Part shown: positions 5,189-26,073 of the stretch, piece after piece | Position numbering within the stretch: the stretch's first letter is position 1 | Layout of the letters: each line of letters starts with the position of its first letter | Origin: a virus | DNA length: 33,001 nt | IMG/VR virus record: IMGVR_UViG_3300011113_000506 | Span: 1-33,001 of that record | Direction: 5' to 3' (one strand) | Made by a program: the position numbers and the translations under genes | Notes under the pieces: model-generated | Seen by the model: the letters and a program-made list of their open reading frames with translations, nothing else | What the model was told of the DNA's origin: nothing | Databases searched by the model: none

Positions 5189-5351
5189 TGTCTTCCCCTA
5201 TCGTGAAGGTCAGCACAGAGTGTAGCACCAGTGCTACGCCTGTAATCCAGAGGGCTTGCTTCAACGTAGGACCCGAAAGGGTAATAAGTACCATGCCCGT
5301 GCCCGCAAGGGTCCACGAGTTTTCAGTGACGTAAGACAGGAACTTCTTCAT
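5181..5351 (-). CDS. 56-residue two-TM membrane protein, holin or holin partner
   Basis: This gene is short: ATG 5351 to TAG at 5181. The peptide starts MKKFLSYVTENSW and has two hydrophobic segments (LAGTGMVLITLSG and ALWITGVALVLHSVLTFTI) and an acidic tail (GEDSE). Its ATG overlaps the stop of the PA14/Thr-rich gene (TAATG), and its end overlaps the GTG of the next holin-like gene, so translation is probably coupled. A hairpin-like topology with both ends inside resembles small class II holins. I recognise no named family. The compact overlaps on both sides are the best evidence that it is real. Confidence 0.65.
   Translation of the reverse strand: MKKFLSYVTENSWTLAGTGMVLITLSGPTLKQALWITGVALVLHSVLTFTIGEDSE
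5222..5237. promoter_or_regulatory. Perfect palindrome GTAGCAC-CA-GTGCTAC
   Basis: Seven-base arms with a two-base centre lie inside the 56-residue membrane-protein gene. The minus-strand half reads GTGCTACACT, which also forms an extended -10-like TGC-TACACT. The same GTGCTACNNT core occurs in the candidate promoters before the scaffold gene and before the first late gene. I see no -35 here. It could be coincidence within coding sequence, a third regulatory site, or an internal promoter for the holin/endolysin genes. Confidence 0.35.
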
Positions 5352-6625
5352 TACCGTCGAATCCTAGTCGCTCCTGCTGCTGCGATAGCCGCCCCGATAG
5401 CGATGAGGGCACGGCGTTCACCGACAGGGATTTTGGAGCCGACAGGAACATAGGTATCCAACCCAGATTTGTAGATGTCTACCTGTTCTTCGAACGCTTC
5501 TCGTACTTCGGTGGGTGCGTTCTGCACAGCGGCTACTAGGGCAGCGACCTGCTCCTCATCCAACTCCTCAACCTCGATGGAGGCGAACACTTCGGCTGCC
5601 TGGTCGGGTTCTAGCGATACCAAAAGTTGTGCTATTTGGGAACTATCGGTGTCGCTGTTGAGGGTAACCTGTGGGGGTGGCGTTGTTTCTGGGATTGTGG
5701 TTGTCGGTGGGATTGTTGTTGTTGTTGACGGTGGGGTGGTTGTCGTTTCTGGGACGGATGTTGTCGGAGGAACCGTTGTGCGAACCGTCGTCGTGCTGCT
5801 GTGAGTCGTCGTCGTTGAAGGCTCAACGGTTGTTGAGGGAGGAATCGTTGTTGTCGGGGGAAGCGTTGTCGTCGTCTCAGGAACGGTTGTCGTAGTCGTC
5901 GCTTCGGTGGTGGTGGTTGCTGGCGGCACGTAGACCGTCGTAGTTGTAGTCGTAGTTGTAGTTGTTTGTTCGGTAGTGGTGGTGGTTTCTTCCACCGTCG
6001 TCGTTGTTACCTCTACCGTTGTGGTAGTTGGCTCAATAGTTGTCGTCGTAGGAACCGTCGTAGTTGGCACTGTCAATTCAGTACGGGTGAACGCCGAGTC
6101 GGGCACTATTGCCCAACCTGTGTTGTCGATGTTCCAAGCAAGCATGTAGCAGGTTCCGCCACCCCATTCAAAGAACCAGCCGTCTAACGGATATGAGCCT
6201 GCTTGGAGTGTGAGGGTGACTTGTTGGGACCATCGGCAGCCTTTGAGGTTCCATGTGCCGAACTCTGTTCCAGCGATGTTGACGGTGCCGCCGTCGTCGG
6301 CTGCGACCATGAAACTGATGGTGTCATGTTCTGGGAGGGTGATGTATCCGCTGTAGTGGACCATGAAGAAGTCATATGGGCAGGGTCCGAATGGTTCGCC
6401 GTTGAAGTTGCGGTTGATGTTGTTCTCTGTCTCGCTGTGGCAGACAGGGTAGAGGGTGTCGTCGCGGGTGGGGATGCTTGTTGGTTGGTAGGTGTAGCCG
6501 ATGGCGTTGAGTCCTGGTTGGGGTTCAGCGTTGGCTGGTGTTGTGAGGGCGAGTAGGGCTGCTGGCGTGAAGATGAGCCAGCGGTACCTATTCGATTTCT
6601 TGGGTTGTCGGTGCGACGAATACAT
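5351..6625 (-). CDS. Secreted PA14-like protein with Thr-rich linker and C-terminal membrane anchor
   Basis: The 424-residue product has a signal peptide (hydrophobic 16-29, likely cleavage after Ala33 in ANA). A globular domain follows (about 35-180) with FMVAADDGGTVNIAG and GTWNLKGC, the features of PA14-like carbohydrate-binding β-barrels. Cysteines 62, 82, 130 and 159 may form disulfides. Residues 185-315 are almost entirely Thr, Pro, Val and Glu. A conserved-looking helical acidic domain (320-385) leads to YVPVGSKIPVGERR and a last hydrophobic segment (about 406-419) ending RIRR. It is therefore probably displayed on the cell surface or carried in the virion after membrane passage. ATG 6625 is needed for the signal peptide, although it overlaps the previous gene by 38 bases. 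Adhesin, exclusion factor or lysis helper are all possible. Confidence 0.7.
   Translation of the reverse strand: MYSSHRQPKKSNRYRWLIFTPAALLALTTPANAEPQPGLNAIGYTYQPTSIPTRDDTLYPVCHSETENNINRNFNGEPFGPCPYDFFMVHYSGYITLPEHDTISFMVAADDGGTVNIAGTEFGTWNLKGCRWSQQVTLTLQAGSYPLDGWFFEWGGGTCYMLAWNIDNTGWAIVPDSAFTRTELTVPTTTVPTTTTIEPTTTTVEVTTTTVEETTTTTEQTTTTTTTTTTVYVPPATTTTEATTTTTVPETTTTLPPTTTIPPSTTVEPSTTTTHSSTTTVRTTVPPTTSVPETTTTPPSTTTTIPPTTTIPETTPPPQVTLNSDTDSSQIAQLLVSLEPDQAAEVFASIEVEELDEEQVAALVAAVQNAPTEVREAFEEQVDIYKSGLDTYVPVGSKIPVGERRALIAIGAAIAAAGATRIRR
5681..6073 (-). repeat. Low-complexity Thr/Pro codon repeat region
   Basis: This stretch encodes residues 185-315 of the PA14-like protein: about 130 residues built from runs of Thr broken by VP, IPP, VE and LPP. 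The plus strand shows reiterated GTTGT and CGTCGT units. Such tracts can change length by slippage and act as extended, possibly glycosylated, stalks. Confidence 0.75.
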
Positions 6626-6785
6626 CGTTCACCGCATCATAGATGTAGCCGATGCCGACGGTGAACGGTTCGCCACCCAAGTCATGCCATTCGCCTTGAA
6701 GGTTTGCTGTTGCCCATGCGTAGTCGGCAACGATGATTTCGGTGACGACGCTGTTCACAAGTTTGGCGCAATAGTTCTTGCTCAT
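6588..6785 (-). CDS. Small NGIV-type tail-associated protein, copy B
   Basis: The 65-residue product has AKLVNSVVTEIIVAD, LQGEWHD, then VGIGYIYDAVNDVFVAP. This pattern (AK..N.iV.evIV, L.GEW, GIGy.yd...F..P) is shared with the protein at 7684-7929 and with many small phage proteins next to tail fibre genes. ATG 6785 overlaps the end of the Gly-rich gene as ATGA, and its 3' end overlaps the start of the PA14-like gene by 38 bases. The role is unknown; adhesin folding or attachment is a reasonable guess from position. Confidence 0.65.
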   Translation of the reverse strand: MSKNYCAKLVNSVVTEIIVADYAWATANLQGEWHDLGGEPFTVGIGYIYDAVNDVFVAPTTQEIE

Positions 6786-7687
6786 ACCTTGAACCTCACG
6801 AACACCACACCATCAGAACCTGCACCCGATGTAGTGTTGCCACCAGCACCACCACCAGAACCATAAAAAGTTGAAGTTGCGTTACTTCCGTTGGTTGAAC
6901 CTTGTACGCCGCCATTTCCACCAGATGAGTTACCAGCAGTACCACCAGAACCGCCAGAACCCCCTGCACCACCACCGCCACAACCAGCATGAGTTGTGAC
7001 AGTGCCACCAGTAAAAGTAGTCAGTGCAAATCCTGTGCCACCGTTGCCGCCTGTGGTATTGCTGGCAGCAGAACCAGCCGCCGTTGCACCACCACCACCA
7101 CCACCGCCCTTTAGCGTTCCAGTTCGGTCGGCTATGCCACCATCATTTGCAACATTCGCAAGTTGAAGCACACAAACACCAGCAGCAGTACCCGCCGTGC
7201 CAAATGCGTTTCCTCCCTGACCACCAGCGCCACTACCAGCAGCAATACCGCACTCTGCGCCAGTTCCCGTGTCGTTGGCTTTGCCACCGCCACCACCGCC
7301 AGCAAGAAGCAAATCGCACCTACTCAAACTGCCACGATTTCCGCCGATAGAACTTGTTGTCTGTGCGGCACCCTTCGCACCGACCGTAATCGTTGCGTTT
7401 GCATCAAGGTAAAGAGTTTCTTGAATAACCGCTCCACCTCCACCTCCACCTGCACCACCATGATTGATTTGCAAACCGCCCGACCCACCGCCACCGACTA
7501 CAAGCACATCAAACAAACCAGACTTAGAAACCGTCAAAGTACCCGACGAAGTAAAAGTCAAAAGCGTGTACGCCTGACCACCAACCGTAATAGATGACGA
7601 TGAGCCACCCGTCGCTGTGCCGTAAGTGCCAGCGAAAATCGTGTCCGTTGTTTGTGATGACACATAACCTAAATACGAACGAGTCAT
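6782..7687 (-). CDS. Glycine-rich tail adhesin/fibre protein, copy B
   Basis: The 301-residue product has a short N-terminal segment starting MTRSYLGYVSSQTTDTI, a β-rich portion, then FDVLVVGGGGSGG at the start of a glycine-dominated domain with many GGGG and GGxGG runs, ending GSDGVVFVRFKV. This is the layout of Gly-rich phage tail domains that form polyglycine-II sandwiches at fibre tips, often used in receptor binding. It is paralogous to the protein at 7929-8798 (same LGYVSS.TT start, LVVGGGG entry and R(V/F)xVRF/W exit). Its start overlaps the preceding small gene by ATGA. Long plus-strand frames through this region come from the GC-rich Gly codons. Confidence 0.75.
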   Translation of the reverse strand: MTRSYLGYVSSQTTDTIFAGTYGTATGGSSSSITVGGQAYTLLTFTSSGTLTVSKSGLFDVLVVGGGGSGGLQINHGGAGGGGGGAVIQETLYLDANATITVGAKGAAQTTSSIGGNRGSLSRCDLLLAGGGGGGKANDTGTGAECGIAAGSGAGGQGGNAFGTAGTAAGVCVLQLANVANDGGIADRTGTLKGGGGGGGATAAGSAASNTTGGNGGTGFALTTFTGGTVTTHAGCGGGGAGGSGGSGGTAGNSSGGNGGVQGSTNGSNATSTFYGSGGGAGGNTTSGAGSDGVVFVRFKV

Positions 7688-7929
7688 TCCACTACCTCAC
7701 TAACAGGCGAAACAAACTGCGAACCGTTCCACACATCACCAATACCCGCATACTTACCACGGTCTTGCCCCTCAACAGGGTTGTTGTTGTACGAAGTTTG
7801 CACCCATTCGCCTGCGAGTCCGATGCTGGCGATGAACGCTTTGCCTGCGGCTTCCGTAGGCGCATCACCGTTACCAACAACGATGACTTCACGAACGATA
7901 CCGTTCTCTATCTTTGCGAAATGTGCCAT
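7684..7929 (-). CDS. Small NGIV-type tail-associated protein, copy A
   Basis: The 81-residue product starts MAHFAKIENGIVREVIVVGNGD, then IGLAGEWVQTSYNNN, GKYAGIGDVWNGSQF and VSPVSE. This is the fuller form of the family seen at 6588-6785. I place the start at ATG 7929, which forms TAATG with the stop of the upstream Gly-rich gene; an upstream extension to 8055 would read a low-quality segment inside that gene. Small proteins of this type often lie between fibre and adhesin genes in marine and freshwater phages. Function not established. Confidence 0.7.
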   Translation of the reverse strand: MAHFAKIENGIVREVIVVGNGDAPTEAAGKAFIASIGLAGEWVQTSYNNNPVEGQDRGKYAGIGDVWNGSQFVSPVSEVVE

Positions 7930-8798
7930 TACGCCACCACCAAAGTTCCTGTGGAATCCCAAGCAATCCAAGTGTAAGAACCGTCTGTTCCTGTCGTTGT
8001 TGTTCCTGTTGATGTGATGGTCAAACCTGCGCCTGTTGCTGATGCGGTGAGCCAACGCACGACGACACGACCCGAACCGCCGTTGCCACCCGGATTTGTT
8101 GAACCAGCACCGCCGCCACCGCCGCCACCACGATTAGCCGTTCCACTAGAACCAGCGACATTAGAGCCACCGTTCCCTGCGTTCGTTCCTGCAGTGCCAC
8201 CCGTAACAGTTCCACCACCGCCGCCGCCACCTGAATACGAAATCGTTGAGCCTGTGTAATTGTTTGTTGATGCTGAACCGCCTGCACCGCCAACAGTGTT
8301 TGTGCCAGCCGAACCTGTGCTACCAGCACCGCCACCACCGCCGCCACCCGTGCCGCCAGATGCGCCAGCACCACCGTTATTGCCCTCACCAGAGATTCCT
8401 GCGCCACCAGTTTCGCTACTTGTTGATGAACCACCACCAGAGCCGCCTGTGTTGCCTTTCAAGTTGTCTGATGCGCCACCACCGCCACCATTTGCAGAAC
8501 CTATGAATGATGATGCAGTTCCGTTCTGACCAGCACGGGCATTAGCAGAACCACCCGCACCCGATGCACCAACTTTCACGGTGTAGGTGGTCTTACCGAT
8601 AATGCCTGAGCCTGTGACGAATCCACCTGCACCGCCGCCAGCACCAGCACCAGAAAATGCGCCAGCATCACTGCGCTGACCGCCACCTCCGCCGCCGCCA
8701 CCGACCAGCAGATAGTCAACATTGAGCGTCGCCGCACCACCAACCAACTGTGTCGTTAGTGATGACACATACCCAAGTTGCCGACGAGCCGTAGCCAT
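7929..8798 (-). CDS. Glycine-rich tail adhesin/fibre protein, copy A
   Basis: The 289-residue product begins MATARRQLGYVSSLTTQLV, enters a Gly-rich domain at VDYLLVGGGGGGGG, and leaves it at GGSGRVVVRWLTAS. A short C-terminal β-rich tail follows (TTTTGTDGSYTWIAWDSTG). Compared with copy B it lacks the β-rich insert before the Gly-rich entry but has the extra C-terminal tail. Glycine-rich tips of this kind mediate host recognition in several phages. It sits after two small structural genes and before the matched NGIV-type gene, so the two form a module that appears twice. Confidence 0.75.
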   Translation of the reverse strand: MATARRQLGYVSSLTTQLVGGAATLNVDYLLVGGGGGGGGQRSDAGAFSGAGAGGGAGGFVTGSGIIGKTTYTVKVGASGAGGSANARAGQNGTASSFIGSANGGGGGASDNLKGNTGGSGGGSSTSSETGGAGISGEGNNGGAGASGGTGGGGGGGAGSTGSAGTNTVGGAGGSASTNNYTGSTISYSGGGGGGGTVTGGTAGTNAGNGGSNVAGSSGTANRGGGGGGGAGSTNPGGNGGSGRVVVRWLTASATGAGLTITSTGTTTTGTDGSYTWIAWDSTGTLVVA

Positions 8799-8801
8799 CA
8801 G

Positions 8802-9170
8802 TTACGCAATCCGATTGACAAACCCGTAAATAACAATCTGGTCAGCCGTAGCAGCAAACGCACGAATCACACGAGCAGTCGCATTACCCTGCAACACAAG
8901 ACCAGGAGCAATCGTCACCAAACCAGCCTCAGGCTGAACCGTCAACTCGATATCGTTATCAACAGCAGTCGTACCACCCCACTGCACCGTCAACTTGATA
9001 GCAGTCGCAGACGCATTCACCGCATACAACCACACCTCGTCAATCGTCGAAGCAGTCGTAGAACCAGTATGAATCGCCGTACCCGTGCCGCTCGTTGCAG
9101 CAACCTTGATGCCCAAACCAGTACCAGTAGTACCAGCAGGCTGAAGTGCGAGTTTCGTGAATGTTGCCAT
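8802..9170 (-). CDS. Small structural protein, probable tail or decoration component
   Basis: The 122-residue product is β-rich and low in charge, with segments DEVWLYAVNASATAIKLTVQWG and ELTVQPEAGLVTIAPGLVLQG and ending ADQIVIYGFVNRIA. Alternating hydrophobic/Thr/Gly strands without a signal peptide suggest a small jelly-roll-like virion protein. I recall similar uncharacterised proteins beside tail fibres in environmental phages, but no named family. It lies between a 165-residue structural protein and the Gly-rich adhesins in the same transcript. Confidence 0.6.
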   Translation of the reverse strand: MATFTKLALQPAGTTGTGLGIKVAATSGTGTAIHTGSTTASTIDEVWLYAVNASATAIKLTVQWGGTTAVDNDIELTVQPEAGLVTIAPGLVLQGNATARVIRAFAATADQIVIYGFVNRIA

Positions 9171-9179
9171 TGTTTACTC

Positions 9180-9677
9180 CTAACTGAAAACCTGAACAGG
9201 CAGAACAATCTGGTCATCCTCACCAGACGAAACCGCCGACGCCCACTTTACACCAGACGACTGCGCAGAATCCGCAGTCAACACCGTATTGTTCGCACCC
9301 ACCCCAACACGCACCACATCCGAACCGTCAAACACCACGACGTCACCCTTAGTGGTGTAGCGCGAAGCAAGAAAATTCGCCTCATCCGCATCATCAGCAG
9401 AAAACACGGGGTAGATAGTCGCACCAGACGAGTGCGTCTGGGCAGTCGTGTCATCCTGCGCACGAGTCAACGTCAGGGTAGACCCCGAGATGGTGGCGAG
9501 GCACTTCTCCTCAGCCGCAGTCCCAGGGCTAATAACCACAAAGAACGGGACAGCCGCCGTAGAAGGCCACCCTGTCGTAGCAGCAATAGCAATCGACGTA
9601 GCACCCGAAGACAACGACGAAGTAATAGTCGTCTGCGCTGCTGCGCCTCGATACTGTCTACGTGTTACTGCTGGCAT
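9180..9677 (-). CDS. Tail fibre-proximal structural protein
   Basis: The 165-residue product starts MPAVTRRQYRGAAAQTTI. It has ATTGWPSTAAVPFFVVISPG, EEKCLAT, TLTLTRAQDDTTAQTHSSGA, DADEANFLASRYTTKGDVVV and NNTVLTADSAQSSGVKW. The order TGWP..pF.v.i..g..EE, then TR..D.T.A..H..GA, then N....TKGDvvv and LtaDsa...GvkW, is shared by many phage fibre or baseplate-adjacent proteins. It therefore probably connects tail body and adhesins. No enzymatic motif is visible. Confidence 0.65.
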   Translation of the reverse strand: MPAVTRRQYRGAAAQTTITSSLSSGATSIAIAATTGWPSTAAVPFFVVISPGTAAEEKCLATISGSTLTLTRAQDDTTAQTHSSGATIYPVFSADDADEANFLASRYTTKGDVVVFDGSDVVRVGVGANNTVLTADSAQSSGVKWASAVSSGEDDQIVLPVQVFS

Positions 9678-9683
9678 GGCACC

Positions 9684-11534
9684 TCATCTTACACTACGCA
9701 TCACAACAATAGCAGTCCCCTCATAATCGTTCTCCTGCTGGGCATACACCACCTGACGTGCCTGCCACTGGATATTCTCCACCACCACCGAAAACGTCTC
9801 AGCGTTCTCCTGATACGAAATAATCCGAGGCGTATCCACCAGGTCGCGGAGAAGGGCAAGTTCCTGGTCGACATCCTGGTAGTACTCGCGTCCCTGGATA
9901 TTGAGGCGGTGGTGCATGAGGAGGGGTACAGAGAAGATTTGGCTACGTAGCGGGGCGGCGTACGCCCTAGCCATCCAACGAGTCAACGTCGGACCCGTGG
10001 AAGCGGTTTGACGGGTGAGGGTCAGTTTGAGTTCCGCTTCAAACACGGTTGCTTCCAACCCGTTCAACGTGTATTCGCGCGCACCCTGAGTGTTATAGGC
10101 GGCGAAATCGTGGTAACTACCGTTGTCCGACTTGATGGACACCATGACCTGTCCGACGAGCGGATAGGTGCGGAGGTCAATCTTGGGGATGAACTTTGCG
10201 TCGGGGACACCCCAACGGTAGATGCCTGAGGTGAGGGTGCCTGAGGGTACGAGGTCGGTGGCGTGCCGTTTGTATAAGCCGAGTCCAGCAACAGTGAACA
10301 CTGGTGCGTTGTCGAACTCGTGGATGTCCACAATCGTCCCTTGTCCTGTAGCCATTAGGTCGGAGGCATAAGCGGGCTGGTTGGTGGAGATGAACACGGA
10401 GATGTCCATGCGTCCGATGCCTGTGGAGGTGGAGTCGTAGTTTTTCCAACCGAAATAAACGTATTGTCCGACGCCAGCAAATGTTTCAACTGCGGCATCA
10501 GTGACGATTTTGGGTCCGATGACAAGGTTGCCGTCGCTATCTGATGAACAGAAACGGAACCCGTCTGACAGTCCGAGAAGGATGTAGCCGAGGTAGCCGC
10601 GCATCCCTGTGATGACTTCACCTAACGGCAGTTCGCCTGCAACGGTCGGTGTTCCGAGTGCGGTGCCGTCTGGTTGAATAGTGGTCTTGTAAATGAGGGT
10701 TTTGTTGCCTGAGTAGCCGCCAGCGTAAATATGGTTTTGTCCAGCAGCGAAACCAATCCACGTAAAGTTCGTATTCGGATGGGTGTAGAGAGCAGTCGGG
10801 TTGTTCGACGGGGAACCTGTTGCGTTGGTGAGGTTCCAAATCTTGTTCTTATCTGCCCCCGTGCCAGCCACCATCAGGCGACCCTTTACATACTCAATCT
10901 TGCCGAATGCATGACCTGTGGCATGACTTGATGCCGTACTACCAGACGCAGACGAATAATAGACGGTACTGTTCGCAAACGAAACATAAACATTGAAACC
11001 ATCAGACGCAACACTGATGATGTTCGATGCTGGGGTTCCCGTTACCGTAGAGAATGTTGACAGGTCGGTTGAATATTTGAGGGTTTGTCCATCACCGATA
11101 TAGAGGCGACCGTCAGCCGTAACCATTTCCAGGTTGGAGTTGGCAGAGGAGTAGGCGAGTGTCGTATCAGGCAAAAGGGTGAGGCGACCCTTCTCCCAAA
11201 CGTTTACACCCTTCGACGTATAGAAACGGAACGCCTCAGAATCCGACGCATCCGAATACTCCTGCCCAGCCCCATAATGCCAAGACGACTGCGAACGACG
11301 CCACAAACCCTGCGGGTTGATAGCACCCTCACCAGGCTCAGCAGACTGGTCAACCGAATCACGAACACGCGCATCATACTGACGAGTAAAAGCGTTGGAC
11401 GCCATGTCCAACATGTAGGGGCGACCGTTGATGGCGACGGGGAAAACGTCGGGCACTAACTGGGATGCACCCGTACCTGTGTAGTAGGCGGGTGCGGGTT
11501 TGTACGCCGTTGTGAACTCGGCTAACGCAGCCAT
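9684..11534 (-). CDS. Large tail protein with β-propeller-like repeats
   Basis: The 616-residue product has an N-terminal region with RVRDSVDQSAEPGEGAINP and LWRRSQSSWHYGAGQE, motifs I associate with a widely conserved minor tail protein of actinobacterial and environmental phages. The middle (about 110-420) has repeated β-blades such as DGRLYIGDGQTLKYS, DGFNVYVSFANSTVYYS, KGRLMVAGTG and QNHIYAGGYSGNKTLIYK, suggesting a propeller. The C-terminal part (about 440-616) is β-rich and ends NDYEGTAIVVMRSVR. Directly downstream of the adaptor gene and upstream of the adhesins, it fits a tail nozzle or hub. With no tape-measure gene in view, a short-tail component is the simplest reading. Confidence 0.7.
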   Translation of the reverse strand: MAALAEFTTAYKPAPAYYTGTGASQLVPDVFPVAINGRPYMLDMASNAFTRQYDARVRDSVDQSAEPGEGAINPQGLWRRSQSSWHYGAGQEYSDASDSEAFRFYTSKGVNVWEKGRLTLLPDTTLAYSSANSNLEMVTADGRLYIGDGQTLKYSTDLSTFSTVTGTPASNIISVASDGFNVYVSFANSTVYYSSASGSTASSHATGHAFGKIEYVKGRLMVAGTGADKNKIWNLTNATGSPSNNPTALYTHPNTNFTWIGFAAGQNHIYAGGYSGNKTLIYKTTIQPDGTALGTPTVAGELPLGEVITGMRGYLGYILLGLSDGFRFCSSDSDGNLVIGPKIVTDAAVETFAGVGQYVYFGWKNYDSTSTGIGRMDISVFISTNQPAYASDLMATGQGTIVDIHEFDNAPVFTVAGLGLYKRHATDLVPSGTLTSGIYRWGVPDAKFIPKIDLRTYPLVGQVMVSIKSDNGSYHDFAAYNTQGAREYTLNGLEATVFEAELKLTLTRQTASTGPTLTRWMARAYAAPLRSQIFSVPLLMHHRLNIQGREYYQDVDQELALLRDLVDTPRIISYQENAETFSVVVENIQWQARQVVYAQQENDYEGTAIVVMRSVR

Positions 11535-13125: not shown

Positions 13126-13276
13126 GACCCTTAGCCTTCCCTGCTTGACTCAACGCGATAGCAACAGCCTGTTTTTTGGACTTTACGACAGGACCACCTT
13201 TGCCTGAGTGCAGGGTGCCTGCCTTGTATTCGCGCATGACTTTGCTGATTTTCTTTTGTGCCTTGCTCTTTTTCAT
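13112..13276 (-). CDS. DUF6496-like 54-residue basic protein
   Basis: A short gene from ATG 13276 to TAA at 13112, with AAAGGAGAACC upstream. The peptide has KVMREYKAGTLHSGKGGPV followed by KSKKQAVAIALSQAGKAKG, the hallmark of DUF6496 (V..VM.EfK.G.L.SG.g..V..rkQAiAIALseAgk.k), a family found in bacteria and phages without assigned role. Seventeen of 54 residues are Lys or Arg. It overlaps the end of the glycosyltransferase gene by ATGA. Confidence 0.8.
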   Translation of the reverse strand: MKKSKAQKKISKVMREYKAGTLHSGKGGPVVKSKKQAVAIALSQAGKAKGRGKK

Positions 13277-14367
13277 AATGGTTCTCCTTTGACGTTTCCG
13301 CTATCGAACACTACCTGATATACGTTCTCTGGTACGACATACTCCTGCCCTGGGAGGTAGGTGAAGTCTTTGCCGTTGATGCTGCCTGTGACCTTGCGTT
13401 TGACTTGCATCGGCATCATCAGGATGGAGTCCTCCCAGACGGGGTCGGTGAGTATGTTACCGACGGGTAACTTGTCGGCGAGTTGACGGGCGGCGTTATC
13501 CCATGACCAGACTTTCGTTTTGCGGACCCGCAGTTTTGCTGACGCTTTGTAGTTTGCATGATTTGAAAATAGGGTTCTCATAGCCTCGGCAAGGTCGTCG
13601 GGGTCTGACTCGTCCCATAACCCACCGTAAATCGACGGGGACTTTTTATGGGGTATGACGATGGATGCGAGGTCGGCGAACTCTGCTTGCCCAGAGGAGG
13701 CGTTGATGATGGTTGGGATGCCCATAGCCATTGCCTGTAGGGGCATGAGTCCGAATCCTTCGCCGCGGGTCGTGGCTATCCAGCAGTCGGCGTCGTTGAA
13801 GAACTTGACCGTCTCGTCTTGGGTGAACCATTTTCTGTGCATGAACACGTTGTCTGGGAGTTGTAGGTCAGGTACGCCGAACGCCTCAGGGTTCGGTTTG
13901 AGGTGGAGTTCGGCGTCGAGGTCGGCGCGTTTGAACGCCTCCAACACAATGTCCAATCCTTTGCGTAGCCATTGTGAGCCGCCAGCATGGAACCTGAACC
14001 GTGTGTTCTCTGGGCGTGGGGTTGCTTTCCAAACTTTGTGGTCTACCCCTAATGGAACTTTTTTTACTACCTTGTGGTAGCGGGAAAACAGTTCGACGTT
14101 GTGGTCGCACGGGACAAGTATCTGGTCATAGAACCGTATCCAGAGTGCGCCACGCGGATGCAACTCCGTTGATTCCCACATCGTAAAACAAGTTCTGTGC
14201 TGCCCTTTGTAGAACCCTTTGATTTGGTATGGCTGCAACATGTTGACCATTACGTCCGCATGTTCGTGGAGTGTGACGTCGTCGGGGACGTGGTTTACGA
14301 AGTTGTGCCACATCGCACCGTACCCGTATCTCGGGTCGGTGAATCCTTGCCAGGACTGGTAGTTCAA
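13273..14367 (-). CDS. GT4-type glycosyltransferase
   Basis: The 364-residue product starts NYQSWQGFTDPRYGYGAMW, an N-terminus I know from phage glycosyltransferases. The C-terminal GT-B half has FHAGGSQWLRKGLDIVLEAF (126-145), with the donor-binding Arg/Lys, then NDADCWIATTRGEGFGLMP and LQAMAMGIPTI. In the usual E-x7-E motif the first Glu is Glu203, but the second position is Gln211, a conservative change seen in some active enzymes. It likely transfers a sugar to virion protein, host surface or DNA; the substrate cannot be read. The start appears to be TTG 14367, overlapping the upstream stop (TTGA); a later ATG (residue 19) would lose the conserved start. It is embedded among structural genes, which favours a virion or host-surface target. 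Confidence 0.82.
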   Translation of the reverse strand: MNYQSWQGFTDPRYGYGAMWHNFVNHVPDDVTLHEHADVMVNMLQPYQIKGFYKGQHRTCFTMWESTELHPRGALWIRFYDQILVPCDHNVELFSRYHKVVKKVPLGVDHKVWKATPRPENTRFRFHAGGSQWLRKGLDIVLEAFKRADLDAELHLKPNPEAFGVPDLQLPDNVFMHRKWFTQDETVKFFNDADCWIATTRGEGFGLMPLQAMAMGIPTIINASSGQAEFADLASIVIPHKKSPSIYGGLWDESDPDDLAEAMRTLFSNHANYKASAKLRVRKTKVWSWDNAARQLADKLPVGNILTDPVWEDSILMMPMQVKRKVTGSINGKDFTYLPGQEYVVPENVYQVVFDSGNVKGEPL

Positions 14368-20690: not shown

Positions 20691-21478
20691 CAGCCACCAC
20701 CCAACGCTCGTTCAAGAAGGTCCGCGAGAGTACGGAAACCCTGTAACTGTGTTTCACTTTCACGACCACGAGTAACCGCCTGCTCGGTCAACGTCGACAA
20801 TGCGGGAGTCTGCTCAGCGCCACCCATCGCTGCTTGACGTTCACGCATCTGCACGAACTGGACCGCCTCACGAACTTCTTTCGGTGACATCGGGCGACCC
20901 AACAAACGGAACGACTCATCAGTCAACACCTTGGTGATGTCCTCTTTGGCGGTGACGCGAACGGTGCGCCCGCCTGCAGCCTGACCGCCAGGAACTTCGT
21001 TCTGCAAAAACGCGAGACCGATGTCATCGGTGACGCCCCAACGGTTGAGGCTCAACAAATACTGTGCGGTGGCGTTCAAATCACGTGAATCGAACGTGGA
21101 CGTAGTCGGTTTGCCGCCATCGTAAAGTCCGCGGTCGGCAAAGAAGTTGAGGCGTGCAATACGTTCACCACGGTCAAGGGAAGCGAGGTAGCGGTATGCC
21201 TCGGTGGTGATATTGGACGGGTCGTACGGGTCGCGTTTGATGACACCGTTTCCATCAACAAGTCCTGGACCTTTGTAATACGTTTTGGTGCCACGTTTTA
21301 CGAAATAGTTCTGTCCGTAAATGGGGGATGTGCCAACAAGTGCGGTTGCGCCAGGGGTGACGACGCGTTCAGTGAACTGGAAATCTGGTCCCAACGAATA
21401 GGTTGGCAGATTAGGTGACCCGACAATGACTGGCGGCATCGGCTCAGTGTCAACAATCGTGGTAGGCGTGTTGCTCAT
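20690..21478 (-). CDS. Unknown virion-region protein (262 aa)
   Basis: The 262-residue product begins with a Pro-rich segment (TIVDTEPMPPVIVGSPNLP), then a β-like part with PIYGQNYFVKRGTKTYYKGP. A helical region follows with TTEAYRYLASLDRGERIARL, ATAQYLLSLNRWGVTDDIGL and MSPKEVREAVQFVQMRERQA, and it ends LADLLERALGGG. I recognise no family. It overlaps the giant gene before it (ATGA) and the 508-residue gene after it (one base), so the four proteins from the giant gene to 18073 are almost certainly co-translated. It may be a partner of the giant protein; no direct evidence. Confidence 0.55.
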   Translation of the reverse strand: MSNTPTTIVDTEPMPPVIVGSPNLPTYSLGPDFQFTERVVTPGATALVGTSPIYGQNYFVKRGTKTYYKGPGLVDGNGVIKRDPYDPSNITTEAYRYLASLDRGERIARLNFFADRGLYDGGKPTTSTFDSRDLNATAQYLLSLNRWGVTDDIGLAFLQNEVPGGQAAGGRTVRVTAKEDITKVLTDESFRLLGRPMSPKEVREAVQFVQMRERQAAMGGAEQTPALSTLTEQAVTRGRESETQLQGFRTLADLLERALGGG

Positions 21479-24400
21479 AGTTCGTCGACCTCTGATGCTA
21501 GTTCACGGTCCCATACTCTCTGGAACTCTGGCACCGCTTCCGACAGTGACGTACCGATGTTGAACAACCATTGGCGCAGTTCTGCGGCTGCTTTCGCGGT
21601 AGCGAACCCGCCTTCCTTTCCGCCTGCAGCGACGTACTGTGCGATTGCTTGGTCGCGGTAACGCAAGTATTCTGCTGCCGCACCAGCAATCTCGTTGTCA
21701 GCCAACCGCGGGTCGGCGACAGCACGTTTCATCTGTTCGATGCTGCGGTCGAACTCGCCGATAGTGAACACGGGTTGGGCAGGGAAGCCTGGGAGTTGTT
21801 CAGAGATTTTTTGGCGTTGACGACGCAACCAATCCTTGACTTCCGCGGGCGGGTACTGTCCTGCCTGACGCTTCAAGTCGCGGTAGATGGCGTTGCCGAC
21901 ACGGAACTGGGCAAGGTCAATCATTTCTGCGGCGGTCAGGCGTTTGCGGGCACCCGTGCGAATCTGGCGGTCCCATACGGAGAACGAGAAGTCGTCGCCA
22001 CCTGGAGCGAAGTAGGCGGCTACCTGCGGGAAAGCCTCCATTACGTCTTTGTTGTTGCGTTCCCAGTCACCAAACTGTTCGGTAGCAGCCACACCAGGCT
22101 GAACTGACTGGGTCTTGGACGAAATGTATAGGAGAGCGTCGTCTCCGTAGATGCGGAGGAAATCGGCGACCGCCTTGTCGTAGTTGGCTGTCTGCAAATC
22201 TTGGAACGCTTTCAACAAATAGGAGGCGTAGACGTCGCCCTTGTTGGTTTCGACGATTGCCTCAGGCGTACCTGACGTCGGTCCGAGGAATTGTGACAGG
22301 GCACGGAATCCCGTGAGAACTCGGGCGCGCCACTTCGCATCGTTCAGGAGGCGTTCTTTTTCGGCTGGGTCGTTCAACTCGTATTCGCCAGATGCCGATA
22401 GTGCGCGCACGGTTTCGGTGTACGTGTTCGCGTAGATGGATTCGGTTTTGCCTGGGTTGTCGCGTAGGGCGGAATACAGTTTGTTGGCATATCCAGGGAC
22501 TAGGGCACCAGGTTTCTTCCTGCCGTAAGGCAGGAGAATCTCGACGATGGCGTCGGTGGATGGTGTGTCGGGGATGAGTTCCGATGCGGCGATTTGGGCG
22601 ACTGGTCCGATGGCGGGGATGACTTGAAGACCCATCGACAAACCTTTGACGGGTGCCTGTAGCGGTGCATTGACACCAGTCAACAGTTTTGCGAGGTCGC
22701 CTGAGAACGGGATGTTGAACGTGTTCTGACCCGTGATTGGGTCCTTGTAGAAGAATCCTTGTCCGTCGTTGTCTGGGTCGTAGTTGACTGCACCGTTGTA
22801 GACGAGTTGTGCGCGACGAATCTTGGTCGGGTCTTCGTACAGGAACTTGCCGTAGGTGCCGAGGATTTCTCGCCATGCTGCGCCGAACGGGATGATGATG
22901 CGGAAGATGTCTTCGAGGTTGTTGCGTTCGGTGGCGTTGAACAAAGTTTCTTTCGTCGAGTTGAGTGCACGCAAACCTGCGTAGTCTTCCAACTGGCGGA
23001 CGGTACCCGTGCCGTTGGCGCTGTCAAGTTTCGCCAACAACGCTTGGTAACGCTCCTTGCCTCCGAACACGGCTTCTGGAGTCATCTTCAGGTAAGCGGC
23101 GCGACCAGCGATGGATTGCTTGAACAGGCGCGCTTCTTCTGGGGTGAGCAAATCGGCGTTCTCGATGAACTGCTCGTAGTAGAACTGGCGGTACACGGGT
23201 GAGCGTTCGAACTTGCGGCTCAACTTGCCGTATGCACCGTCGAAAAACCAGTCGACCGCACGGTTCTTCAGCCCGAGAATCTGCATGTCTTTTTGCGTGA
23301 CACCAGCGGGGGTAGGGACGCCGACCTCTTGGGCGTACTTCACCCACTTAGGCAGGCTGTTCCCTGGTGTGGCGTACACGCCAGCAAGATAGTTTTGGAA
23401 CTCTTTTGCGCCGATGTCGGTGTCCCAAATGTCAAAGTCGGAAAGACGGCGGACGGTCCAAGAGGTGTCGCTGTTGACTGCGGTAACGACCGCTTCAATC
23501 GGTCGACCGTTCTCCATCCCGAGCGAAATGTTGGAACCGACACCTTGGCGCAACCTGCCGCCGATGAAATCGGTGTCTTTTAGGTTTCGTGGGTCGATTG
23601 TTTCCGACGCGGCGAGCGGCATACGTCGGTTGGCGATTGCCCAACGTAGCGTCTCGTCGCCGCCAGTCATCGCGTTGATGCGCGGGTTGCCAAGACGCTC
23701 AATCCATTCAGCAAGGAGTTCGTCGTTGACTTCTCCGTTCGCAAGACGCACGAGATAGTGCTGGTTGTTGACGATGTCATAACCGTCGAGACCACCCTTC
23801 AAATAGCGTTGCAGTCTTCGCAACGATTTGACTGCTTGCGGATTGTCGGTTCGACGCAACCATGCGACCAGTTCGTCGGTTGGAATTCCTTTGGCTACGG
23901 CATTGTTGATTTGGTCCTGGGAAAGTCGGCGGAGTTCGTCATACAGCCCACGAAGGTACTGTTCTTTGTCGCCAATTTTTCGGGCAAACGCGAACGAACC
24001 GTTCCTGATTCCGCGTTCGTACGCTTTCGATGGGTCGTCGAGGTTGCGGCGCAACCCAAACGACATCGCTTCTTCGAACGTGTCTTGGTAGTCGCCGAAC
24101 GTGCGGACAAGTTCCTCGACACCATCGTCAATGGAGCCACGCCCAACAAATCCTTCAGGCATTGTCTTGTTGAGGACAAGTTGCATGTAACGGAACGGGT
24201 GGTTGAAAAAGCCTGCTTTGCCGACGGCTGCCATACGGATTTGGGCGTCGAACATGTTGCGGAAGATGTAGCCGCCCGTCATCAGGGTGAGCGGTTTCCA
24301 GATTTCGTTCTGCAGGTAGTCGGTGACGGCGGTTGCGGCGCGCGGGTCGCCTGCCCGTTTGGAGAGGGCGCGGCGCACGAACGGGTTCGCGGTGAGGCGG

Positions 24401-26073
24401 CGGATGACTCGGACGTCTGGGAGGACTTGGACTTTGTCGGCGAGTTCAACAAGCGACCCTGGTCCAGCAAGACGCAAGTTCTTGATGATGGTCGGGTTGA
24501 CGTCGTCGCCTGCGATGAGGTGCCCAGAGTCAATGAGGGATTGCATGAGACCAAAGTCGTCGAGTTCGCCCGCCTCGTTTTGGAGGAATGAGCGAAGTTC
24601 GTCTTTGATTTTGGCGACGCGGGAGAAAGTCTGTTTGGCGATTTCATCAGCCTGTTCTGGGGCTACGGCAAGCGCACCAGTGGACAGTTCGTTCTTGATA
24701 ACTTTCGTGACGAGGTTCTCGAACAGGTCGTTGACTTGTTTCGCTCCAGCAGCGGTCGGGTCGGCAAACGTCTCCATGACGTTCGACATGAACACGCGTG
24801 CTTCGTCCTCTGGAATCGCCTTGCCAAGCGACTTGACGTACCTGCCGTAGTTTTTGACGGCGTTTATCGAATCCTGTGCAGTGCCGACTTTGATAACGGC
24901 GTCTGGCATTTTGGTAAGGAGTTCACTGTTGCGAATGTTGTTCCAGAACGGGAGCCGTTCGCGGGCTTTGACGATGTCGCGGATGTCGGTCGGGAAAATG
25001 CCCGAGAGTTCGGCGTCCATTCGGTTTGCTTGTTCGCCGACGATGGCGAGGACTTCGTCGCGTGTCTTGGCTTTCGCGAGACGGTTCGCGGTCCCGATGT
25101 CGATTTTTTCTTTGAAGACGTTGGAGAAGATGTCGTAGGCGTCTTCTTTCTCGATGAGGGTTTCGGTGAGTCGGCGGGCTTTACCGTTCGTCTCGAACCA
25201 TTGACGGAACTTTGAGCCGTTCCATGCGACGGTTTCTGCTTGCGACAAGCCTGCCGCGGCGCGTTCGCCAGCGGCGGCGACTTTTTGGAAGGCGGCGATT
25301 TCGTCGGCGGTTTGCAGGGCGGGAATGGCTGCGCGTCCAGCACGCGCGGCTTTGAGCGCTTTGCCGCCGTAAAGGGTCGGGTCGGCAAACACGTTGACGG
25401 CGGCATCCACGAAACCCGAGAGAATGTTGTACGGCTTCGAACCTGGGGCAAACACGACGTCAGCCGCACCGCGACCCAACGTCCATGCCGAACCGTTGAT
25501 GGTCCCACGTACACGGCGCGCACGCTCAGCCTGCTTCTCTGCCGCGGTGCCGCCAAGGAAGAACCCTTCGCCAGCGGTAATGGGTTGACCCGTCGCAGGG
25601 TCAATCTCGCCCTTTGATGCAGCCACCATCGTTCCAAGCGACGTCGACTTGAACCAGCCGTCGAACCCCTCAGGGTTGTCTTTGTTCAAGAGTTGTGAAC
25701 TGACGTTTTGCGCCAACTCTGGGGCAAGGTTCAACGTTGCGAATGTGTATCGTGCCGCGCTTTTCAGCGGGTCGTAGAACGTGCGTTCGAACCAACCTTT
25801 CTTGCGGGGAGGGTTGGGGTCAAGACGTGCAGGCAACTGTTTGCCTGATTGCGTCGACGCTGCGTTGACCAACTGGTCTGATGCACCTGCTTTGGCTAAC
25901 GCAAGAATCTCGCCTGGTTTCATCCATGGGTTCGCACGATAAATCTCTCCAATGCGGGCAGCCAACTGCGGTGTCGCTGTCGCTGCTGTTTGTTCGCGAA
26001 GTTTGTTCTTCGCGTCAATCTGGTCGAGGATTACCTCTTCGTCAGCCTTTTCTGGCAACACCCCGTAGGACAT
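21475..26073 (-). CDS. Giant virion-region protein (1532 aa), candidate DNA-ejection/internal protein
   Basis: This is the longest gene in the window. The 1532-residue product opens with helical segments (ILDQIDAKNKLREQ, IYRANPWMKPGEILALAKAG), then a basic stretch (KKGWFERTFYDPLKSAARYT). The middle is long and helical with few membrane-like stretches, including WKPLTLMTGGYIFRNMFDAQ and a clear NLEDIFRIIIPFGAAWREIL segment that looks conserved. The end is helical and charged. I find no SLT, lysozyme, peptidase or MuF motif. Large proteins between portal and capsid genes in phages without a tape measure are often ejected into the host as a channel (compare T7 gp16 or N4 gp50 by position only). 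The role is inferred; homology cannot be judged by eye. Confidence 0.6.
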   Translation of the reverse strand: MSYGVLPEKADEEVILDQIDAKNKLREQTAATATPQLAARIGEIYRANPWMKPGEILALAKAGASDQLVNAASTQSGKQLPARLDPNPPRKKGWFERTFYDPLKSAARYTFATLNLAPELAQNVSSQLLNKDNPEGFDGWFKSTSLGTMVAASKGEIDPATGQPITAGEGFFLGGTAAEKQAERARRVRGTINGSAWTLGRGAADVVFAPGSKPYNILSGFVDAAVNVFADPTLYGGKALKAARAGRAAIPALQTADEIAAFQKVAAAGERAAAGLSQAETVAWNGSKFRQWFETNGKARRLTETLIEKEDAYDIFSNVFKEKIDIGTANRLAKAKTRDEVLAIVGEQANRMDAELSGIFPTDIRDIVKARERLPFWNNIRNSELLTKMPDAVIKVGTAQDSINAVKNYGRYVKSLGKAIPEDEARVFMSNVMETFADPTAAGAKQVNDLFENLVTKVIKNELSTGALAVAPEQADEIAKQTFSRVAKIKDELRSFLQNEAGELDDFGLMQSLIDSGHLIAGDDVNPTIIKNLRLAGPGSLVELADKVQVLPDVRVIRRLTANPFVRRALSKRAGDPRAATAVTDYLQNEIWKPLTLMTGGYIFRNMFDAQIRMAAVGKAGFFNHPFRYMQLVLNKTMPEGFVGRGSIDDGVEELVRTFGDYQDTFEEAMSFGLRRNLDDPSKAYERGIRNGSFAFARKIGDKEQYLRGLYDELRRLSQDQINNAVAKGIPTDELVAWLRRTDNPQAVKSLRRLQRYLKGGLDGYDIVNNQHYLVRLANGEVNDELLAEWIERLGNPRINAMTGGDETLRWAIANRRMPLAASETIDPRNLKDTDFIGGRLRQGVGSNISLGMENGRPIEAVVTAVNSDTSWTVRRLSDFDIWDTDIGAKEFQNYLAGVYATPGNSLPKWVKYAQEVGVPTPAGVTQKDMQILGLKNRAVDWFFDGAYGKLSRKFERSPVYRQFYYEQFIENADLLTPEEARLFKQSIAGRAAYLKMTPEAVFGGKERYQALLAKLDSANGTGTVRQLEDYAGLRALNSTKETLFNATERNNLEDIFRIIIPFGAAWREILGTYGKFLYEDPTKIRRAQLVYNGAVNYDPDNDGQGFFYKDPITGQNTFNIPFSGDLAKLLTGVNAPLQAPVKGLSMGLQVIPAIGPVAQIAASELIPDTPSTDAIVEILLPYGRKKPGALVPGYANKLYSALRDNPGKTESIYANTYTETVRALSASGEYELNDPAEKERLLNDAKWRARVLTGFRALSQFLGPTSGTPEAIVETNKGDVYASYLLKAFQDLQTANYDKAVADFLRIYGDDALLYISSKTQSVQPGVAATEQFGDWERNNKDVMEAFPQVAAYFAPGGDDFSFSVWDRQIRTGARKRLTAAEMIDLAQFRVGNAIYRDLKRQAGQYPPAEVKDWLRRQRQKISEQLPGFPAQPVFTIGEFDRSIEQMKRAVADPRLADNEIAGAAAEYLRYRDQAIAQYVAAGGKEGGFATAKAAAELRQWLFNIGTSLSEAVPEFQRVWDRELASEVDEL

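What the first reader, a model, noticed from the sequence alone, without database searches (positions are those of the whole stretch)
6588..8798. Tandem duplication of an adhesin module
Gly-rich protein plus NGIV-type small protein occurs twice in the same order (7929-8798 with 7684-7929, then 6782-7687 with 6588-6785). Both Gly-rich proteins start with LGYVSS.TT and enter the Gly domain via LVVGGGG or LLVGGGG; both small ones share AK..N..V.E(I/V)IV and GEW. The copies have diverged, so the phage may carry two host-recognition tips or use them as variants.
Basis: seen in the sequence. Interest (0 to 1): 0.6.

Follow-up and report, generated by a model that had tools for sequence, protein, structure and literature searches.

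The report
Slot-tagged phage adhesin cassettes, not duplicates
This phage carries two side-by-side pairs of a glycine-rich tail-tip adhesin and a tiny probable folding helper; the pairs are not copies of each other but two positions in a mix-and-match array that related freshwater phages refill with different adhesins.

Summary
In detail: on the minus strand two Gly-rich/small-protein pairs (G1 7929-8798 + S1 7684-7929; G2 6782-7687 + S2 6588-6785) sit in a translationally coupled run. S1 and S2, and the G1 and G2 bodies, each have closer relatives in other phages, and AU tests reject them as sister pairs (p 2e-6 and 1e-13). In about 200 related loci the same G-S module occurs 1-6 times per array behind a 122-aa protein. 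The shared LGYVSS start is a short N-terminal tag whose flavour fixes the position: A-tag slot 1 (40/40), B-tag slot 2 (24/24 after one apparent exception was resolved), never reversed. Behind the tag, bodies of two registers (X, Y) and small proteins reassort: the window's slot-2 body is closest to a slot-1 body of another phage. G1's model matches the tail tips of Bxb1 and Pam3; S1's only clear match is the Pam3 tail-fibre chaperone gp25, partner of that same fibre. Best reading: slot-addressed, exchangeable tail-tip adhesins, each followed by a minimal TFA-like chaperone. This is a new variant of a known kind.

The parts
9180..9677 (-). p165, tail-fibre/virion-structural N-terminal type protein upstream of the array
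   Evidence: phrog_23837 virion structural 1.2e-55, phrog_38058 tail fiber 7.4e-13; mostly 58-89% identical in relatives
8802..9170 (-). p122, small protein that leads the array (candidate docking adaptor)
   Evidence: phrog_30535; stands directly before slot 1 in 45 of 45 A-tag arrays where the locus reaches that far; arrays in larger genomes each have their own p122
7929..8798 (-). G1, slot-1 Gly-rich tail-tip adhesin (A-tag + X body)
   Evidence: PF21722 7e-22; model pLDDT 92; Bxb1 tail tip Z 13.5, Pam3 gp24 Z 13.1
8739..8798 (-). A-type slot tag of G1 (MATARRQLGYVSSLTT...), residues 1-20
   Evidence: A tags only in slot 1, 40/40; predicted disordered, pLDDT 52-56
7684..7929 (-). S1, small probable tail-fibre chaperone (stand-alone TFA-like N-domain)
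   Evidence: model pLDDT 90.6; top PDB match Pam3 chaperone gp25 7ypx_a, Z 6.7 over 60 residues, 2.1 A
6782..7687 (-). G2, slot-2 Gly-rich adhesin (B-tag + Y body)
   Evidence: PF21722 1.9e-9; nearest body is slot-1 body of L147, 61% over 273 aa
7634..7687 (-). B-type slot tag of G2 (MTRSYLGYVSSQTT...), residues 1-18
   Evidence: B tags in slot 2, 23/24, the one exception having an A-tagged ORF before it
6588..6785 (-). S2, small protein of the second module, different clade from S1
   Evidence: phrog_14370 1.6e-6; starred 7-row clade (99) apart from S1

Best explanation
The region is a two-slot array of exchangeable tail-tip adhesin cassettes of a tailed phage (probably podoviral and actinobacterial-type). 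Each cassette makes a Gly-rich tip protein and, by coupled translation, a tiny partner. The short flexible N-terminal tag (LGYVSS type) docks the tip on the tail and decides which position it takes: A-tag position 1, B-tag position 2. The folded Gly-rich body faces the host and binds a surface receptor. The small protein is a minimal tail-fibre chaperone/cap that helps the floppy Gly-rich tip fold or shields it until assembly. The two cassettes of this phage were filled from different sources by recombination that keeps the slot tags and swaps bodies and small proteins; they are not a tandem duplication. Shown here by computation: tags, slots, reassortment, phylogeny, predicted folds. Inferred: docking by the tag, chaperone action, receptor binding.
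For: Slot rule: A slot 1 40/40, B slot 2 23/24; arrays read AB, CD or CDCD, never reversed; the single exception has an A-tagged ORF ahead of it. Tag/body reassortment: A and B tags each occur with X and with Y bodies; at least 17 tag changes on the body tree of 43 rows, 8 between A and B alone; G2's sister is an A-tag slot-1 body (95 support), 61% identical against 60% for the nearest slot-2 body. Not duplicates: AU p 2e-6 for S and 1e-13 for bodies. Small-protein clade is associated with body type given the tag (permutation p 0.0005). Fold: G1 matches Bxb1 tail tip (Z 13.5, 36% id) and Pam3 fibre gp24 (Z 13.1). S1's only clear match in 350,542 chains is the Pam3 chaperone gp25, the partner in the same solved complex, and this was expected from PMC9608196 before the search. 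The tag is predicted disordered. Flanking genes mostly stay 60-100% identical while bodies drop to 29-74%.
Against: S lacks the C-terminal helical trimerisation domain of gp25 and has no sequence match to TFA families or solved structures. The Foldseek E-value of the gp25 match is weak (0.25, prob 0.85), and Z 6.7 alone is middling. S clade is also associated with tag given body, and pairwise linkage between S and body is weak (Mantel r about 0.19), less than a strict cognate chaperone would suggest. Some arrays have two G and one S. No virion proteomics or host is known for this record. Loci were fetched by similarity to these genes, so frequencies are not unbiased.
Confidence: 0.7

Rival explanations
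1. Tandem duplication in this phage or a recent ancestor: G1-S1 copied to give G2-S2, followed by divergence.
For: Same gene order, shared LGYVSS start, both small proteins in one family. A few other loci have similar S in both slots (L165 0.71).
Against: AU tests reject both sister pairs; within-genome similarity equals between-genome similarity; the copies have different body registers X and Y.
Confidence: 0.05
2. Ancient duplication of a tagged adhesin gave paired slots A/B (and C/D), after which bodies were shuffled. The slots are old paralogues, the contents are not. This is compatible with the best explanation and adds an origin to it.
For: Slot-1 tags A (RRQLGYVS) and C (RRELGYVS) resemble each other more than slot-2 tags; fixed order in all arrays.
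Against: The tag is too short for a tree; separate recruitment with convergence on one docking site is not excluded.
Confidence: 0.5
3. The small protein is a virion component (cap or accessory receptor binder) that stays on the particle rather than a released chaperone.
For: Some TFA proteins (Mu, V22-type) stay on the fibre (PMC10579305, PMC9608196). S is small, abundant in aquatic phages and lacks the helical domain that makes gp25 a trimer.
Against: The fold match is to a chaperone absent from Pam3 virions (PMC9608196).
Confidence: 0.3
4. The Gly-rich proteins are head or tail decoration proteins, not receptor binders.
For: phrog_2295 is of unknown function; no binding data.
Against: Both solved matches are tail-tip or tail-fibre proteins; the locus lies behind tail genes and is the hypervariable part.
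Confidence: 0.1

Closest known systems
Cyanophage Pam3 tail fibre gp24 with chaperone gp25 (PDB 7YPX, PMC9608196)
   Same: Gly-rich distal domain (G1 Z 13.1 over 165 residues) followed by a small gene whose product matches the gp25 N-terminal beta-sandwich domain (S1 Z 6.7 over 60 residues); same gene order.
   Different: Pam3 has one pair; gp24 has an N-terminal helical docking domain where G1 has a disordered tag; gp25 has a C-terminal helical trimerisation domain that S lacks; no slot tags or arrays.
Mycobacteriophage Bxb1 tail-tip Gly-rich protein (PDB 9D93 chain Qa/Qb)
   Same: Best fold match of G1 (Z 13.5, 171 residues, 36% identity).
   Different: The match covers G1 residues 22-250 only; the tag and the C-terminal strand element are not covered. 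The Bxb1 paper was not held, so its gene context was not compared.
Ackermannviridae branched tailspikes TSP1-4 (PMC11721090)
   Same: Several receptor binders per phage, N-terminal parts that fix position, receptor domains exchanged between positions (similar domains in tsp1 and tsp4).
   Different: Beta-helix tailspikes with large XD/TD N-terminal domains; here a short tag of about 18 residues, Gly-rich bodies and a separate small chaperone-like gene per module.
Alteromonas phage A5/V22 tail fibre plus chaperone modules (PMC10579305)
   Same: Fibre-chaperone pair shared between unrelated phages by exchange.
   Different: Different folds (DUF4376 chaperone); one pair per phage.
Salmonella phage S16 gp38 adhesin (from Pam3 paper; own knowledge)
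   Same: Gly-rich receptor-binding tip.
   Different: Not among the fold matches returned here; sits on gp37, no partner gene of S type.

Membership tests
Pfam PF21722 Gly_rich_2 | Profile match above curated cutoff | tested here: met
   G1 79 bits and G2 38 bits against cutoff 24.3
Pam3 gp24-type tail fibre | Gly-rich distal domain with adjoining beta-sandwich fold | tested here: met
   Foldseek prob 0.97; VIA Z 13.1 over 165 residues, 2.6 A
Pam3 gp24-type tail fibre | N-terminal alpha-helical trimerisation/docking domain | tested here: not met
   G1 residues 1-20 predicted disordered, no helix before the body
Tail fibre assembly (TFA) chaperones | N-terminal beta-sandwich domain fold as in Pam3 gp25 | tested here: met
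   S1 against 7ypx_a residues 3-63: Z 6.7, 60 residues, 2.1 A, next row Z 2.1; Foldseek prob 0.85, E 0.25
Tail fibre assembly (TFA) chaperones | C-terminal alpha-helical trimerisation domain | tested here: not met
   S1 is 81 aa and ends after the N-domain; no helix after residue 35
Tail fibre assembly (TFA) chaperones | Sequence match to a TFA family | tested here: not met
   No Pfam match for S1 or S2; no solved-structure sequence match with the family profile
Tail fibre assembly (TFA) chaperones | Required for folding of the fibre | not testable with these tools
   Needs co-expression
Tandem gene duplicates | Copies are each other's closest relatives | tested here: not met
   AU p 2e-6 for S, 1e-13 for G bodies
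Branched multi-RBP systems (Ackermannviridae type) | Position-specific N-terminal parts with exchangeable receptor domains | tested here: met
   Tag-slot rule (gene order) and tag/body reassortment; position in the virion itself not tested
Branched multi-RBP systems (Ackermannviridae type) | Beta-helix tailspikes with XD/TD domains | tested here: not met
   G1 model is a Gly-rich fold, matched to Gly-rich tips
S16 gp38 polyglycine adhesin | Polyglycine II sandwich lattice as in PDB 6F45 | tested here: inconclusive
   6F45 not among returned matches; absence is not evidence

The most novel reading that the evidence does not exclude
A short disordered N-terminal peptide is a position code. Phages of this group diversify one to six tail tips combinatorially, by recombining through the conserved tag DNA so that any Gly-rich body and any minimal chaperone can be put in any slot while order and stoichiometry are preserved. 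The tag DNA (CTTGGGTATGTGTC[AG]TC[AG]) would then serve both as docking code and as recombination anchor.
Probability: 0.4. Interest if true: 0.68.

Novelty: new variant of a known kind. Interest (0 to 1): 0.52.

Why it matters
How aquatic phages keep several receptor binders, and swap them without breaking virion assembly, is largely unknown outside enterobacterial tailspikes. Here the rule can be read from sequence: slot tag + body + small partner. It gives a way to annotate hundreds of hypothetical genes in freshwater phages, names testable partners (tag with p122/p165/p616; S with G) and offers a natural set of swapped combinations for studying host range.

Tried and rejected
Tandem duplication: rejected by trees, AU tests and the within/between comparison. 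Strict G-S cognate pairing: only partly supported. Class-level association is significant (p 0.0005), but Mantel r is about 0.19 and S is also associated with tag. p122 as the tag receptor: nearest-neighbour agreement with tag system is 95% against 51% expected, but p616 also agrees (73% against 47%), so inconclusive. Sequence-profile searches of solved structures with S, X-body and Y-body alignments found nothing significant. Host through genome contigs: only three remote hits in unrelated MAGs, no host. DNA search of named phages: only an 83-bp match in Pontimonas phage phiPsal1. tblastn of G2 found no named phage (BLAST masks low complexity). S16 gp38 did not appear among fold matches. The Bxb1 structure paper was not held. 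Which slot varies more could not be answered fairly, because most loci were fetched through S1.

Full report
What is there. The window is a whole 33,001-base linear virus record of IMG/VR with terminase, portal, major head protein and a RecE-like exonuclease. Its tail gene p616 (9684-11534) is closest among named phages to Beephvirinae of Streptomyces, of which Abafar is a podovirus (PMC11536984); podoviral morphology of the window phage is therefore an inference. On the minus strand the order is p294, p616, p165, p122, G1, S1, G2, S2, then a PA14-like gene. The four genes of the finding have exactly the stated coordinates, and their ends overlap by 1-4 bases. G1 and G2 are PF21722 proteins. 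S1 and S2 share phrog_14370.

Relatives. Three scans of viral contigs gave about 200 loci. The G-S module is repeated one to six times per array, usually directly behind p122. Large genomes hold several arrays, each with its own p122 (L144, L146, L158).

The shared start is a slot tag. LGYVSS occurs only at the N-terminus of Gly-rich ORFs. It comes in flavours. A (xTARRQLGYVSS) stands in slot 1, 40 of 40. B (TRSYLGYVSSQTT) stands in slot 2, 23 of 24. C (RRELGYVSA) and D (GYVSASN) form the same pair in other phages. R (RFGERTRSG) is found in slot 1, mostly of single-module arrays. Read as strings the arrays are AB, CD, CDCD or R, never BA or DC. The single B in slot 1 (L029) has an A-tagged ORF before it that my glycine filter had missed.

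Bodies reassort. Two body registers exist. X (window G1) runs VDYLLVGGGG...VVVRW and ends with ...YTWIAWDSTGTLVVA. Y (window G2) begins ...AYTLLTFTSSGTLTVSKSGLFDVLVVGGGG and ends VVFVRFKV. The end of X and the start of Y share a strand motif (hhalign score 24.5 against at most 16.6 in 60 column shuffles), so X and Y look like the same repeat cut at different phases. A and B tags each occur with both. On a tree of 43 bodies the tag changes at least 17 times (shuffled mean 23, minimum 18), so tags and bodies are partly linked but swap often. The nearest body to window G2 is the slot-1, A-tagged body of L147 (61% over 273 aa, 95 support), as near as the best slot-2 body (60%); its small protein also belongs to the S2 clade.

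Not a duplication. S1 lies in a supported clade of 13 rows, S2 in another of 7, and holding them together is rejected (p 2e-6). The same holds for the G bodies (p 1e-13). Over 54 two-module arrays, slot-1 and slot-2 small proteins are no more alike within than between genomes (p 0.38). An old duplication that created the paired tags remains possible.

Fold and function. With alignments of relatives from the fetched loci, G1 folds with mean pLDDT 92, except for residues 1-20, the tag, at 52-56. It matches the Bxb1 tail tip (Z 13.5) and the Pam3 fibre gp24 (Z 13.1), with other proteins at 5.5 or less. S1 folds with pLDDT 90.6. Its first Foldseek hit among 350,542 chains is Pam3 gp25, the chaperone bound to gp24 in the same solved complex, confirmed at Z 6.7 over gp25 residues 3-63, next row 2.1. 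I had read the Pam3 paper before running this search, so the match was an expectation that could have failed. In Pam3 the gp25 N-domain grips the fibre tip and the helical C-domain makes the trimer (PMC9608196). S keeps only the gripping domain. Small-protein clade depends on body type given the tag (p 0.0005), as expected if S touches the body, but also on the tag, and the overall correlation is weak. S as chaperone/cap is therefore likely, not proven.

Variation. Against relatives with p616 at about 60-77% identity, downstream p84 is mostly 80-100%, while G bodies are 29-74% and slot-2 small proteins mostly 13-55%. This is the usual profile of a host-recognition locus. Most loci were fetched through S1, so slot-1 and slot-2 variability cannot be compared fairly.

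A lead. Codons of the A tag are more uniform (pair identity 0.69) than conserved positions of p122 (0.46), p165 (0.60) or p616 (0.59); its Gly is GGG in 35 of 40 while GGG is 3% of Gly codons in bodies. This would fit a DNA-level crossover anchor, but constraints near a start codon could do the same.

Known or new. Gly-rich tips, TFA chaperones and position-fixed, domain-swapping receptor binders are each known (Pam3, Bxb1, Ackermannviridae, Alteromonas A5/V22). The combination of arrays, short slot tags, two body phases and a stand-alone minimal TFA-like partner was not found in the papers searched. I call it a new variant of a known kind.

Noticed in passing
window 5351-6625 (-): Sub-threshold PA14 match (E 0.0014) with an apparent signal peptide, Thr-rich stalk and C-terminal hydrophobic segment; its ORF overlaps the end of S2 and homologues sit after the arrays of relatives (mostly 31-72% identity).
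   Followed up: partly
window 21475-26073 (-): 1532-aa ORF next to the portal-side genes with no PHROG match at E 0.001.
   Followed up: no
L043, L044, L047: Arrays with up to six G-S modules including a CDCD run and a double-length 570-aa Gly-rich protein; similar 556-600-aa forms occur elsewhere.
   Followed up: partly
window 8739-8798 and 7634-7687 (-): Tag DNA is unusually uniform in codon choice across phages (GGG for Gly in A tags, TAT, GTG), possibly a recombination anchor or a start-region constraint.
   Followed up: partly
window 13273-14367 (-): Glycosyltransferase gene (phrog_2170, 2e-26) between head and tail genes.
   Followed up: no
L029 1975-2215 (+): Slot-1 small protein of a different type (AGIGWAVVDGVVVRP motif) after an A-tagged, less Gly-rich ORF: another tip/partner type using the same slot tag.
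   Followed up: no
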